Source of the DNA: Collinsella ihumii
GTDB lineage: Bacteria > Actinomycetota > Coriobacteriia > Coriobacteriales > Coriobacteriaceae
Length of the DNA: 64,000 nt
Assembly: GCF_900046475.1 (NCBI RefSeq)
Contig: NZ_FCOU01000012.1
Span: 193,924-257,923 of the forward strand
Direction of reading: 5' to 3'
Positions within the stretch are counted from its first letter, which is position 1, and each line of letters begins with the position of its first letter. Under the pieces are notes generated by a model that saw only the letters and a program-made list of their open reading frames with translations, searched no databases and was not told the origin of the DNA. Of this stretch, positions 4,333 to 54,906 are shown piece by piece. The translations under genes and the position numbers were made by a program.

Positions 4333-4545
4333 GCCCGGCACGTGGCCGACCGACGCGAAATGGATTGATCGGTGGTTCCCTAGGGAAACGCTGATCGATT
4401 GCTTTCGCGGCGGTCGGTTCCGTGGCGAGGCGGATGCGGGAGAAGACAAGGAAGGCGCAGTGTACCTGCGCCGACGCAGCCTGAACCCGCAGGCGCCCGC
4501 CACGGGGCCGACCGGTGCGGAATGAATTGGTCAGCGTTTCCCTAG
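4333..4545. repeat. Cluster of three copies of a 51-bp intergenic repeat (family C)
   Basis: The 427-bp gap between folD and fhs contains a forward copy at 4333-4383, an inverted copy at 4380-4431 sharing the central CTAGGG, and a second forward copy at 4495-4545. The best-conserved half reads close to GCCCGCCACGGGGCCGACCG and the other end is (A/G)GTTTCCCTAG-like. A further copy is at 43603-43653. A more degenerate inverted copy may lie at about 4297-4330. No reading frame is evident here. Confidence 0.65.
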
Positions 4546-4634: not shown

Positions 4635-4661
4635 GGCCCGGGCAGCTCAACCGCCCGGGCC
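4635..4661 (-). terminator. Intrinsic terminator of fhs
   Basis: GGCCCGGGC / GCCCGGGCC hairpin with a nine-base loop, 29 bp beyond the fhs stop, followed on the transcribed strand by GTTTGCGTTG. Confidence 0.6.
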
Positions 4662-4689
4662 TCATATCCAGCGATCGGAGGCCTATCGC

Positions 4690-6357
4690 CTAGAACAGGC
4701 CGGAGATGACGCCGTTCTCGTCGACGTCGATGTTCTCGGCAGCCGGGACCTTCGGCAGGCCCGGCATGGTGAGCACCTGTCCGGTCAGCGCGACCACGAA
4801 GTGCGCGCCGGCAGACACCTTGAGCTCGCGCACCGTGATGCGGAAGCCCTCAGGCGCGCCGAGGACCTTGTCCTGGTCGGTGAAGGAGTACTGGGTCTTC
4901 GCGATGCAGACGGGCAGGTTGCCGAAGCCGTTCTCGCGCAGCTGGGCGAGCTGGCGCTTGGCAGCGGGCGTGAAGTCAACGCCGTCGGCGCGGTAGACCT
5001 TGGTCGCCACGGCCTCGATCGCGTCGGCGATGTCCGTGCCGTCCTCGTAGGAGAAGCGGAACTCGTTCGGCTGCTCGACCAGGCGCATGACCTCGTCGGC
5101 GAGCTCGAGCGCACCCTCGCCGCCCTTCGCCCAGACCTCGGAGAGCTTGACGTTGACGCCGAGTTTCTTGCACTCCTCCTCGATGAGGGCGAGCTCGGCC
5201 TCGGTGTCGGACGGGAAGCGGTTGATGGCAACGACGCACGGCAGGCCGTAGACGCTCTGGATGTTGTCGACGTGGCGCAGCAGGTTGGGCAGGCCGGCGC
5301 GCAGGGCATCGAGGTTCTCCTCGTTGAGGTCGGCCTTGGCCACGCCGCCGTTGTACTTGAGCGCGCGGGCGGTGGCGACGATCACCACAGCGTCGGGGGA
5401 AAGCCCGGTCATGCGGCACTTGATGTCGAGGAACTTCTCCGCACCCAAATCGGCGCCGAAGCCCGCCTCGGTAATGGCGATGTCGCCGAAGCGCATGGCC
5501 ATGCGGGTGGCCATGATGGAGTTGCAGCCGTGCGCGATGTTGGCGAACGGGCCGCCGTGCACGAAGGCCGGCGTGTGCTCGAGCGTCTGCACGAGGTTGG
5601 GCTTGAGCGCGTCTTTGAGCAGGGCCGCCATGGCGCCCTGGGCCTTGAGCTCGGAGGCGCGCACCGGGCGCCCGTCGTAGGCGTAGCCCACCACGATCTC
5701 GCCCAGACGGTTCTTGAGGTCGGTGATGGAGGTGGACAGGCACAGGATGGCCATGATCTCGGAGGCGACGGTGATGTCGAAGCCGTCCTCGCGGGGCACG
5801 CCCTGGGCGCGCCCGCCGAGGCCGTCCACGATATGGCGCAGCTGGCGGTCGTTCATGTCCACGGCGCGCTTCCAGGTGATGCGCTTGGGATCGATGCCGA
5901 GGGCGTTGCCCTGCTGGATGTGGTTGTCGAGCATCGCCGCGAGCAGGTTGTTGGCGGCGCCGATGGCGTGGAAGTCGCCCGTGAAGTGCAGATTGATGTC
6001 CTCCATGGGGATGACCTGGGCGTAGCCGCCGCCCGCCGCGCCTCCCTTGACGCCGAACACCGGGCCGAGCGACGGCTCGCGCAGCGCCACCGCGCTCTTG
6101 ACGCCGCGACGGCGCAGGCCGTCGGCCAGGCCGATCGTCGTGGTGGTCTTTCCCTCGCCCGCAGGGGTGGGGTTGATGGCGGTGACCAGCACCAGCTTGG
6201 CGTCGTGGTCCGTCGGCTCGTTCAGCAACGAGTAGTCGATTTTGGCCTTGTCGAACCCGTACGGGATGACGTACTTCTCATCGACGCCCGCTTCGCGGGC
6301 GACCTCGATGATGGGAAGCGGCTTAACGGAATGTGCAATCTCGATGTCTGACAACAT
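4690..6357 (-). CDS. fhs: Formate-tetrahydrofolate ligase
   Basis: Formyl-THF synthetase makes 10-formyl-THF from formate, THF and ATP. The 555-residue length is normal. The P-loop [14 protein letters not shown] lies near residue 68, and [22 protein letters not shown] and [14 protein letters not shown] are classic Fhs motifs. ATG 6357 has GGGAGG eight bases upstream. It works with FolD in purine and formyl-Met supply. No other Wood-Ljungdahl genes are nearby. Confidence 0.97.
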
Positions 6358-8802: not shown

Positions 8803-8866
8803 TGCAAGAAACAGGTACGTCCCCCTCTTGCAAAAATGCATGCGGGGGACGTACCTGTTTCTTGCA
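8803..8866. repeat. Perfect 23-bp inverted repeat, GGGGAC palindrome family A
   Basis: Arms at 8803-8825 and 8844-8866 are perfectly complementary and include AGGTACGTCCCCC. It sits between ruvC (start 8690) and the stop of the next gene (8901), both on the minus strand. It shares the GGGGACGTACC core with 12176-12259 and 14629-14702. Confidence 0.8.
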
Positions 8867-12175: not shown

Positions 12176-12259
12176 GCGGCCCCGTGCAAATTCGGGGACG
12201 TACCCGCTGCGTGCATTTTTGCACGCAGCGGGTACGTCCCCGAATTTGCACGGGGCCGC
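12176..12259. repeat. Perfect 40-bp inverted repeat, palindrome family A
   Basis: Arms 12176-12215 and 12220-12259 are perfectly complementary around a TTTT loop. The core reads GGGGACGTACCCGC. It fills most of the gap between the usp start (12070) and the ABC-ATPase stop (12268). Confidence 0.85.
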
Positions 12260-13164: not shown

Positions 13165-13236
13165 TTTGGGGACAGTCCCTTTTTGTTCACGACGGCGCCC
13201 ATGCGCCGTCGTGAACAAAAAGGGACTGTCCCCAAA
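13165..13236. repeat. Perfect 34-bp inverted repeat with GGGGACAGTCCC core
   Basis: Arms 13165-13198 and 13203-13236 are perfectly complementary with a four-base loop. The arm begins TTTGGGGACAGTCCCTTTTT. It lies between the divergent ABC-ATPase and ilvA starts, so it cannot be a simple 3' terminator for either. Confidence 0.85.
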
Positions 13237-14628: not shown

Positions 14629-14702
14629 CCTCATGCAAATCGGGGACGTACCTGCCGCGTGCATGAATGCACGCGGCAGGTACGTCCCCGATTTGCATGA
14701 GG
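14629..14702. repeat. Perfect 35-bp inverted repeat, palindrome family A
   Basis: Arms 14629-14663 and 14668-14702 with a TGAA loop. The core reads CGGGGACGTACCTGCCGCG. It directly follows the ilvA terminator, so the 497-bp ilvA-ilvD gap contains terminator, repeat, then promoter and leader. Confidence 0.85.
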
Positions 14703-19354: not shown

Positions 19355-20350
19355 ATGGCTGTTACGATCTATTACGAGAGCGACTGCGATCCCAAGGTCA
19401 TCCAGGACAAGAAGATCGCCATCATCGGCTACGGCTCTCAGGGCCACGCCCATGCGCTCAACCTGCTCGATTCGGGCTGCGACGTGCGCGTCGGCCTGCG
19501 CGAGGGCTCCAGCTCCTGGGCGAAGGCCGAGGAGGCCGGCCTCAAGGTCTGCGACATGGACACCGCTGCCGAGGAAGCCGACATCATTATGATGCTCGTT
19601 CCCGACGAGACCCAGCCCAAGGTCTACGAGGACCACATCGCCGCACACTTGAAGCCCGGCGACACCCTGGCCTTCGCCCATGGCTTCAACATCCACTTCG
19701 GCTACATCAAGGCCCCCGAGGACGTGAACGTCATCATGTGCGCGCCCAAGGGCCCCGGCCACATCGTGCGCCGCCAGTTCGTCGAGGGCTCCGGCGTGCC
19801 CGATCTGGCCTGCGTGGCGCAGGACGCAACCGGCAACGCCTGGGATATCGCGCTCGCCTACTGCTGGGGCGTGGGCGGTGCCCGCTCCGGCATCATCAAG
19901 GCCACCTTCAAGGAGGAGACCGAGGAGGACCTGTTCGGCGAGCAGGCCGTGCTCTGCGGCGGCCTCGTCGAGCTCGTCAAGGCCGGCTTCGAGACCCTGA
20001 CCGAGGCGGGCTATCCGCCCGAGCTCGCGTACTTCGAGTGCTACCACGAGATGAAGATGATCGTCGACCTCATGTACGAGAGCGGCATCCACTTCATGAA
20101 CTACTCCATCTCCAACACGGCGGAGTACGGCGAGTACTACGCCGGCCCGAAGGTCATCAACGAGGAGAGCCGTGCGGCCATGAAGCAGATCCTGGCGCGT
20201 ATCCAGGACGGCTCCTTCGCCCAGGAGTTCGTGGACGACTGCGCCAACGGCCACAAGTGGCTGCTCGAGCAGCGCGAGAAGATCAACGAGCACGAGATCG
20301 AGAAGACCGGCGAGAAGATCCGCTCCATGTTCAGCTGGATCAAGAAGTAG
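19355..20350 (+). CDS. ilvC: Ketol-acid reductoisomerase, class I
   Basis: A 331-residue NAD(P)H enzyme that isomerises and reduces acetolactate. The Rossmann motif [17 protein letters not shown] is followed by a beta2 loop LREGSSSW, whose Ser-rich sequence suggests NADPH use. [19 protein letters not shown] and the metal-binding Glu-rich CYHEMK region are present. AAGGAGAACAACC precedes ATG 19355. It is the last gene of ilvDBNC, with an 84-bp gap after ilvN. Confidence 0.97.
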
Positions 20351-20413: not shown

Positions 20414-20465
20414 GTGCGTGTGTTTGCAAGCTCGGGCGCCTGGGAGACCGCGCCGTGCGGTATAG

Positions 20466-20703
20466 ATTTCGGTTCGTGGTCAATTTAGCCATCGAACCGG
20501 GTTTTTGATGGCGCGCGACGTGCGCTGGGGGTGCTGGAGCCTCGGATTATGGCCGGTTTGGCCGTTGTCGGGACCCATCTGCTCGCTTCACAGGTGACTT
20601 CTAAGCTATGTCCCACCGCCGGAACGACGAGATGCAATATTATATGTTGTTTCCGCAACCCATCCGTCCCGGTTCGATGGGTAAATTGACCACGAACTGA
20701 AAT
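20466..20703. mobile_element. 238-bp MITE-like element with 36-bp TIRs and 6-bp target duplication
   Basis: The terminal inverted repeats (20466-20501 and 20668-20703) agree at 34 of 36 positions; the outer end begins ATTTCGGTTCGTGGTCAATT. GTATAG flanks the element directly on both sides (20460-20465 and 20704-20709), which is a target-site duplication. The 166-bp interior has no credible gene. It is a non-autonomous element; no matching transposase is in the window. It makes up most of the otherwise empty 20414-20895 gap. Confidence 0.85.
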
Positions 20704-20895
20704 GTATAGGGATGTCAGTCGAGGTCGCAGCTGTTTGCGATGTACCAAAAGCCATCACACTTGATGCACTCGCTCGCGGTTACCGATGAAAAGCGCATGA
20801 CGTGAGCCCGAGCGGGGCACCGGGCGCTCACTATAATGTGGGTGGGGCGCAATGACGAACACCCCCGCATGCCATGCTCAGAGGAAGGAGCACAT

Positions 20896-21702
20896 ATGCA
20901 AAGAAAGGGCTTTTGCCGAGGCCTGAGGACACGCTTGCTTCGCGGCGTTGCCATCGCGTGCGCGGCAGCGATGATGATCGCACCGAGCGTCGCCACGGCC
21001 GCGCCCCAGAACGGCTGGGACGAGGTGGGCGGCGAGCGCTACTGGTACGACGACGGCGTCATGGCCCGAGACAAGCAGGTCTATGACCCCGGGACGGACG
21101 CCTGGTACTGGTTCGACGCCGACGGCACGATGGCCCGCGACAAGGACGTGTTCATCCCGGTTTCCAACGAGGACCGCTCCCGCGGCAAGTGGGTGCGCTA
21201 CGACGCGGACGGCCACATGGTCAAGGGCGAGGACTTCCGCTACGGCGGCTGGTACTACTTCGACCCCGTGACCGGCGAGATGGCAAAGGGCTTTGCCTAC
21301 ATTCCGGGCCAGAACAAGTGGTCGTTCTACGATCGAACCACTGGGAAAATGCTCTACGGCGAGCAGGCGATTGACGGCGGCTGGTACTATCTGGACGATT
21401 TCACGGGAGCCGTGCACTACGGTTGGAAGGACCTGCCCGGCAAGCGCGTGTACTACGACACCACCACCGGACGCATGGTCTATGGCTGGCAGAACATCGG
21501 CGGAACGTCCTACTACTTCGATCCCGCAACCGGTGCTCTGCAGCAAGGCGAGCCTGTGGTAGAAACGGTATATGTCACCCCGAACGGACGCAAGTTCCAC
21601 CGCGCATCGTGCCCCACGACCTCCGGTCACAGCACGAGCGCCCTATCGCGAGCCGATGCCGTCGCAGCGGGTTACGAGGCATGCAGGGTCTGCAAGCCGT
21701 AG
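20896..21702 (+). CDS. Secreted cell-wall-binding repeat protein
   Basis: A 268-residue exported protein. A signal peptide (residues 1-35: basic start, hydrophobic IACAAAMMIAPSVATAA) is followed by seven or so choline/glucan-binding-type repeats rich in WYYFD, GWQNI and similar aromatic motifs (about 40-225), which usually bind teichoic acid or glucan. The last 45 residues form a small Cys/His domain (RKFHRASCPT...ACRVCKP) resembling a metal-binding module found at the ends of secreted nucleases. No catalytic domain is seen. The start ATG 20896 has GGAAGGAG upstream. A small adhesin or wall-retained protein is likely. Confidence 0.85.
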   Translation: MQRKGFCRGLRTRLLRGVAIACAAAMMIAPSVATAAPQNGWDEVGGERYWYDDGVMARDKQVYDPGTDAWYWFDADGTMARDKDVFIPVSNEDRSRGKWVRYDADGHMVKGEDFRYGGWYYFDPVTGEMAKGFAYIPGQNKWSFYDRTTGKMLYGEQAIDGGWYYLDDFTGAVHYGWKDLPGKRVYYDTTTGRMVYGWQNIGGTSYYFDPATGALQQGEPVVETVYVTPNGRKFHRASCPTTSGHSTSALSRADAVAAGYEACRVCKP

Positions 21703-26286: not shown

Positions 26287-26485
26287 AGTGGAGGCTGCGC
26301 AGCGAATAATTGCTGATTAATCGACGTTGTAGACGGATTGATTCGGAACGTGCGGACAACCGCACCCGCCGCGAAGTCATTACCTGCAGAAACGATGAGC
26401 CTACAGGTGCCGTTTCGCCCGGGATCGGATTTCACCCGCATACAACGTCGATTTTTCAGCAATATCAGCGCGTCGAGCCTCCACT
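26287..26485. repeat. 199-bp imperfect inverted-repeat element (possible second MITE)
   Basis: The ends AGTGGAGGCT (26287) and AGCCTCCACT (26485) are perfect inverted repeats. Complementarity continues imperfectly for about 50 bp, with ATCGACGTTGTA conserved in both arms (about 26320 and 26447). No target duplication or gene is visible. It lies 34 bp from the IS element. Confidence 0.55.
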
Positions 26486-34551: not shown

Positions 34552-34637
34552 GTAACCCCGCCGGCATCACCCGGCCGGAATGCACGGAATCGGCGCCGAT
34601 TCCGTGCATTCCGGCCGGGTGATGCCGGCGGGGTTAC
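34552..34637. repeat. 86-bp perfect palindrome
   Basis: Arms 34552-34594 and 34595-34637 are perfectly complementary over 43 bases with no loop; the arm begins GTAACCCCGCCGGCATCACC. It lies between the addA stop and the M81-peptidase start, both on the minus strand. It has no T-tract and no GGGGAC core, so it differs from family A. Confidence 0.85.
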
Positions 34638-48535: not shown

Positions 48536-48670
48536 GAGTTTGGTGCGATTTTTGAGTGCCGTTTCTCCCCACGCGCCATACCCTTCAACAAAACCGCAGG
48601 ATTCAACTGGGCTTTTGTTGAGGGGTGTTGCGCCTGTGAGCGAGGGGCACGCAAAAATCGCACCAAACTC
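48536..48670. repeat. 135-bp imperfect palindromic element
   Basis: Outer arms GAGTTTGGTGCGATTTTTG match at 24 of 25 positions (48536-48560 and 48646-48670). An inner dyad CCCTTCAACAAAA / TTTTGTTGAGGGG continues the hairpin. It lies in the otherwise empty 430-bp rhaM-ThrE gap. Confidence 0.7.
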
Positions 48671-54675: not shown

Positions 54676-54760
54676 GGTGACGCGGCGGCCCGGGCGCCCT
54701 CCCCCCGGCAAGATGGGCCGCCTCCGCGCCTCCCGCGCCGCGCAACCTCGCCCGAATCGA

Positions 54761-54871
54761 CGGTACGCTATGGGCACGCCGTCCCGCCGAGAGTACGGTA
54801 TAGGCACGTTTTTCACCCGGAAACGTGCCTATACCGTACCGTGGACAGGATGGTGTGCCTATAGCGTACCG
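54761..54871. repeat. 111-bp nested palindrome
   Basis: A perfect 19-bp inner dyad (GTACGGTATAGGCACGTTT, 54793-54839) is nested in an outer pair CGGTACGCTATGGGCAC / GTGCCTATAGCGTACCG. With neighbouring units it fills the 54383-54906 gap, where no gene is seen. Confidence 0.7.
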
Positions 54872-54906
54872 TGGACCGCCCGCTCACGCTCCCGATCGAT
54901 ACAAAG

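What the first reader, a model, noticed from the sequence alone, without database searches (positions are those of the whole stretch)
20466..20703. MITE with 36-bp terminal repeats and 6-bp target duplication
34 of 36 TIR positions match and GTATAG is duplicated exactly at both edges, so transposition, not chance, created it. There is no transposase inside. A 6-bp duplication with long TIRs does not match the IS3 element nearby, so another transposase must move it.
Basis: seen in the sequence. Interest (0 to 1): 0.6.

Follow-up and report, generated by a model that had tools for sequence, protein, structure and literature searches.

The report
Private family of paired inverted repeats
The 238-bp stretch is one of nine scattered elements in this genome that share near-identical inverted ends around mostly unrelated interiors; it looks like a small non-autonomous mobile element, but the 6-bp "target duplication" that suggested how it moves is a coincidence.

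Summary
The sequence is as described: 20466-20703 has 36-bp inverted ends matching at 34/36, with GTATAG at both edges. The genome holds nine such pairs plus one solo end, intergenic or at gene edges. They were found in no other of 400 sampled genomes of the class except at one locus in one relative. The 6-bp duplication is not real. Aligned across nine copies, GTAT (left) and ATAG (right) are constant parts of every element, and only the window copy happens to show GTATAG twice. Only a TA dinucleotide flanks all nine, so a TA duplication is possible but unproven. The conserved part is a 27-bp box, CGTGGTCAATTTRCCCATCGAACCGGG. Boxes are nearly identical between copies, while interiors are 60-70% identical at best and mostly unalignable. 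Box-to-box spacings (194, 203, 205, 205, 214, 215, 216, 234, 236 bp) fall about 10.4 bp apart, and a sister family has 304-305 bp in all five copies. This suggests that ends, distance and helical phase are selected, and the interior is not. Best reading: a long-lived population of non-autonomous elements, REPIN-like in dynamics, moved by an unidentified transposase that must bring both ends together. It is neither a classical MITE nor a REPIN by definition.

The parts
20460..20463 (+). GTAT, outer left end, constant in all nine copies when oriented (usually preceded by CG)
20464..20474 (+). variable outer stretch of the left arm (AGATTTCGGTT)
   Evidence: low conservation across copies
20475..20501 (+). 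left conserved box CGTGGTCAATTTAGCCATCGAACCGGG, likely protein-binding site
20502..20667 (.). interior, 166 bp, not alignable with the interiors of the other eight copies above chance; no gene
20634..20653 (.). AT-rich segment GCAATATTATATGTTGTTTC; similar AT-rich segments occur in most of the other copies (seen by eye, not tested)
20668..20694 (-). right conserved box (same as left, inverted); TGGTCAA-to-TGGTCAA distance 215 bp
20695..20705 (-). variable outer stretch of the right arm
20706..20709 (+). ATAG, outer right end, constant in all nine copies when oriented

Best explanation
The window copy belongs to a family (F1) of non-autonomous mobile elements of about 230-270 bp. Each ends in TAT...ATA, probably inserted at TA, and carries one 27-bp box per end in inverted orientation. 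A trans-acting transposase, not identified, would bind the two boxes and bring them together by looping the intervening ~200 bp, so only copies with intact boxes at a workable distance and helical phase keep moving. Shown: shared ends, scatter in both orientations, near-absence from relatives, lack of a 6-bp duplication, conserved boxes against diverged interiors, spacing in ~10.4-bp steps. Inferred: mobility itself, the TA duplication, the transposase, and the looping step.
For: Nine pairs plus one solo end genome-wide. Found in only one other genome, at one locus, of the 400 sampled in the class. Orthologous gene spacers in close relatives lack the arms at the four loci compared. Three copies (L065, L071, L068 reversed) share a diverged interior, and L065/L068 homology stops just outside the TATAG/GATAG ends on both sides, as expected for copies inserted at different sites. 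L065/L071 boxes are 49/50 identical against about 62% in the interior, Fisher p = 5e-8. Box spacing is phased at 10.3-10.5 bp, Monte Carlo p about 0.001; 0.0007-0.006 with one copy per related group. A sister family F2 with the related box TGGTCAA-N9-TCCCATTGCAAA has paired sites exactly 50 bp apart at each end (49-50 at one end of one or two copies) and a total of 304-305 bp in five of five copies, despite mostly unalignable interiors. Precedents: REPINs keep ends and spacer length but not spacer sequence (PMC3116915); Paramecium IESs show ~10-bp size periodicity attributed to looping of transposon-like ends (PMC3464196).
Against: No autonomous element with these ends and no candidate transposase was found. 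Insertion was not caught directly: flanking spacers in relatives are too diverged to read an empty site. The phasing test was devised after seeing the spacings, with few independent copies. One locus (L104/G016) is shared by two species, although that region is ~98% identical and may have been exchanged.
Confidence: 0.6

Rival explanations
1. In-place host function: the two boxes are binding sites of a host protein that bridges them into a DNA loop (regulatory or chromosome-organising), and selection acts on each site where it stands.
For: Boxes conserved while interiors decay, spacing in helical steps, fixed 304-305 bp in F2; left and right arms covary at variable bases (column pairs 27/58 and 28/57 show double changes; covariation score reached by 5 of 500 shuffles).
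Against: Neighbours are unrelated housekeeping genes in every orientation, e.g. ilvC, valS-clpX, metG, rho (names by inference), and close relatives with the same genes lack the sites. Private to one species lineage.
Confidence: 0.2
2. Classical MITE: recent deletion derivative of a full-length IS with 36-bp TIRs and 6-bp duplications.
For: Long TIRs, no ORF, multiple copies.
Against: 6-bp duplication absent in 8 of 9 copies and no better than chance; most interiors not shared; no full-length partner among genome-wide hits of the box, which are all close pairs but one, nor in the IS21 copies inspected.
Confidence: 0.07
3. RNA element: the arms form a long stem in a transcript (terminator, RNase target, sRNA).
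For: The transcript would fold strongly (-120.7 kcal/mol, arms paired); some covariation between arms.
Against: G-U and C-A mismatches between arms are equally common (9 versus 10), so no strand shows RNA-pairing preference; outer 13 bp of the stem are largely unpaired across copies; no Rfam match near threshold.
Confidence: 0.08
4. Invertible segment (phase-variable switch) flipped by a recombinase acting on the inverted boxes.
For: Same inverted repeats at several loci with different interiors, as in multi-locus inverton systems (from general knowledge).
Against: The one orthologous pair (L104 and G016) has the same orientation; contexts are housekeeping genes; no recombinase shown.
Confidence: 0.03

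Closest known systems
REPINs (REP doublets forming hairpins, moved by RAYT transposases; PMC3116915, PMC8049555)
   Same: Two highly conserved inverted ends, less conserved interior whose length matters, intergenic, lineage-specific, non-autonomous.
   Different: No GTAG/CGTC-tagged small palindromic REP, 9 pairs rather than hundreds, longer (about 200-bp box spacing versus 71 or 110 bp), TA-bounded; no RAYT linked.
TA-inserting MITEs of the IS630/Tc1-mariner group (Correia elements, ERIC; from general knowledge)
   Same: Short, no ORF, inverted ends, TA at both edges in 9/9 copies, TATAG-like termini.
   Different: Outermost bases after TAT vary and the conserved box is subterminal; most interiors are not shared between copies; presence of an IS630-type transposase was not tested.
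Paramecium internal eliminated sequences (PMC3464196)
   Same: TA-bounded, conserved ends, decayed single-copy interiors, lengths in about 10-bp steps read as a DNA-looping constraint.
   Different: Ciliate germline elements excised by domesticated PiggyMac; here a bacterium and no sign of programmed excision.
IS21-family ends (multiple transposase sites per end; from general knowledge)
   Same: Sister family F2 has two tandem sites per end, 50 bp apart.
   Different: The IS21 copies inspected in this genome have unrelated ends.

Membership tests
MITE | terminal inverted repeats, no coding capacity | tested here: met
   34/36 ends; no meaningful ORF
MITE | target-site duplication (6 bp as claimed) | tested here: not met
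   1 of 9 copies; within-copy agreement equals between-copy agreement
MITE | target-site duplication of TA | tested here: inconclusive
   TA at both edges in 9/9, but TAT/ATA may simply belong to the element; no clean empty site
MITE | copies share their interior | tested here: not met
   only L065, L071 and L068 are clearly related to each other; the window interior is not related to any
MITE | autonomous relative with the same ends | tested here: inconclusive
   no partner among genome-wide box hits; genome is 98% complete in 35 contigs
REPIN | two inverted conserved ends with a less conserved interior | tested here: met
REPIN | REP unit with GTAG or CGTC tag | tested here: not met
   ends are GTAT/ATAG in all copies
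REPIN | associated RAYT (Y1 transposase) gene | not tested
   only a crude motif scan of about 0.65 Mb (some overlap) was made, no clear candidate
REPIN | high copy number (REP families mostly tens to thousands of units, PMC3733652) | tested here: not met
   9 pairs plus 1 solo end
IS21-derived element | ends shared with an istAB element | tested here: not met
   F1/F2 boxes absent around the 14 IstB regions inspected; ends of one multi-copy IS21 differ
Known Rfam RNA | covariance-model match | tested here: not met
   no relevant hit over 13 loci at E <= 1

The most novel reading that the evidence does not exclude
A bacterial population of small elements that is a natural helical-twist experiment: ends, distance and rotational phase are kept by selection for synapsis while interiors drift freely. 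Several such families (F1, F2, and others in the same genome with near-fixed lengths of 157, 135 and about 215 bp) would coexist, each with its own box, served by unidentified transposases.
Probability: 0.35. Interest if true: 0.6.

Novelty: new variant of a known kind. Interest (0 to 1): 0.42.

Why it matters
Short mobile elements in bacteria are usually recognised by shared interiors and target duplications; here both criteria fail or mislead, and one apparent duplication proves accidental once other copies are aligned. If the spacing pattern holds in more strains, these elements would let the looping constraint on transposon ends be measured from genomes, and would show that several REPIN-like populations with different end sequences can coexist in one small genome.

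Tried and rejected
(1) 6-bp duplication: rejected by comparing nine copies. (2) IS21 as mobiliser, suggested by TGGTCAA and tandem sites: IstB loci inspected have other ends. (3) RNA element: no Rfam hit, no G-U bias. (4) Invertible promoter: same orientation in the one orthologue. (5) Arm-to-arm complementarity in F2 linkers looked striking by eye but is no higher within than between loci (permutation p = 0.67). (6) Phage or plasmid origin: no match in phages; three chance-level 29-bp plasmid hits; the single viral-contig hit lies in what looks like a tail tape-measure gene, without a partner. (7) The 17-mer scan of genome contigs gave 13 scattered hits, about what chance predicts for that collection. 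(8) Empty-site test: spacers in relatives lack the arms but are too diverged to show the junction.

Full report
OBSERVATION. The element at 20466-20703 is as described: inverted ends matching at 34 of 36 positions, GTATAG at both edges, no transposase inside. The end sequence is far above chance in the window (two hits, 0.05 expected). It lies between ilvC (19355-20350, + strand; name by inference from the translation) and the start of a secreted-type protein near 20896 on the + strand.

FAMILY. A genome-wide search shows nine inverted pairs of the same 27-bp box plus one solo end at C13:67004. In the class, 400 sampled genomes gave real matches only in this genome and at one locus of one congener, G016; other hits were single sites with three mismatches. 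That G016 locus is orthologous to copy L069 (wider locus L104), with flanks about 98% identical by eye and the element in the same orientation.

ENDS AND THE SUPPOSED DUPLICATION. Oriented on the GTAT end, all nine copies read CG(or AG)-GTAT ... ATAG. The box is CGTGGTCAATTTRCCCATCGAACCGGG, and TGGTCAA begins 16 bp inside the TAT in every arm. The ~13 bp between TAT and box vary. The duplication is therefore an accident of the constant GTAT and ATAG plus two variable bases on each side. A TA dinucleotide flanks all nine and is the only duplication still possible. L065 and reversed L068 are homologous up to TATAG on one side and GATAG on the other and then diverge (allowing a short TTCG shared on the left), which locates the element boundary close to there.

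INTERIORS. Pairwise alignment in both orientations relates only L065, L071 and L068 clearly (z 12.8, 9.3, 5.8; 61-71% identity); the window copy is not related to any other above chance. Between L065 and L071 the boxes are 49/50 identical and the interior about 62% (Fisher p = 5e-8). So the boxes are maintained and the interiors are not.

SPACING. TGGTCAA-to-TGGTCAA distances are 194, 203, 205, 205, 214, 215, 216, 234 and 236 bp; the G016 orthologue of the 214-bp copy has 194. These cluster at a period of 10.3-10.5 bp (resultant 0.86; Monte Carlo p 0.0006 and 0.002; 0.0007-0.006 with one copy per related group). The test was chosen after seeing the numbers and the sample is small, so I treat it as suggestive.

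SISTER FAMILY F2. A related box, TGGTCAA-N9-TCCCATTGCAAA, occurs only in this genome among 45 congeners. Five elements have two direct sites 50 bp apart at each end, 203-204 bp between inner sites, and 304-305 bp overall, with mostly unalignable interiors (only C10 and reversed C12b are clearly related, z 6.8). A sixth place, C7:163973-164047, is a short hairpin of two sites.

GENOMIC SETTING. Stretches of this genome contain many other inverted-repeat families: 48 pairs in about 404 kb, none in shuffled sequence, against 14 and 9 pairs in similar lengths of two relatives. Families A (157 bp, 5/5 copies), B (134-bp arm spacing, 9/9 copies), D (213-215 bp arm spacing), H and I keep near-exact lengths while interiors diverge to 60-80% identity, or 35-50% in D. 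Family A shows 12 pairs with compensatory changes. F1 is thus one of a zoo of hairpin-ended families.

RELATIVES. At four loci compared (L100, L102, L103, L107) the flanking genes are present in close relatives and the spacer between them lacks the boxes. Downstream of ilvC gene order differs, so the window locus itself has no comparable empty site.

MECHANISM (inferred). Conserved ends, phased distance and free interiors are what is expected if only elements whose two ends can be brought together by a protein keep being copied. REPINs are the closest documented dynamic: their ends and spacer length are conserved and spacer sequence less so (PMC3116915). Paramecium IESs show the length periodicity and its looping interpretation (PMC3464196). 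Membership in either is not claimed: the REP tag is absent, and the IES system is eukaryotic. The transposase is unknown.

VERDICT.

Noticed in passing
window 26293-26479: Member of hairpin family A (arms AATTGCTGAAAAATCGACGTTGTAGACGG); five copies all exactly 157 bp between arm ends, with compensatory base changes.
   Followed up: partly
window 48536-48670: Member of hairpin family B (arms GAGTTTGGTGCGATTTTTGAGTGCC); nine copies in the stretches read, all with 134-bp arm spacing.
   Followed up: partly
window 54760-54872: Very strong hairpin of family I (ACGGTACGCTATGGGCACG...), -95.9 kcal/mol as RNA; three copies found, all 112-bp arm spacing.
   Followed up: partly
window 4380-4545: Inverted pair of family C (CTAGGGAAACGCTGATCGATTGC); many single arms elsewhere.
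   Followed up: no
window 8803-8866, 12176-12259, 14629-14702, 13165-13236, 34552-34637: Short tight inverted repeats, those at 12176 and 14629 with the motif GGGGACGTACC (its complement at 8803), resembling REP-type hairpins; unassigned.
   Followed up: no
window 41516, 54482, 61861: Single copies of a widespread 34-bp unit TGGGTTGGTTGGGGACGGGTTCGTTCCAACCCAT (family J), at least 20 copies in the stretches read.
   Followed up: no
L146 4703-5007, L108 4762-5066, L109 4836-5140, L110 4852-5155, L199 about 4652-4955: Sister family F2: four boxes per element in fixed 50/204/50 geometry with mostly unrelated interiors.
   Followed up: yes
L101 about 5064-5200: In copy L066 the right box lies inside the start of a predicted CDS (MAITTDSTRGD...RFDGHIDHDSEIIPS), so the element appears to contain the start codon.
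   Followed up: no
L133-L136: A 3.9-kb multi-copy IS21-type element whose end reads GGTCAAGTCCGTCTTTCTGAAATGATCACGG, unrelated to F1/F2.
   Followed up: partly
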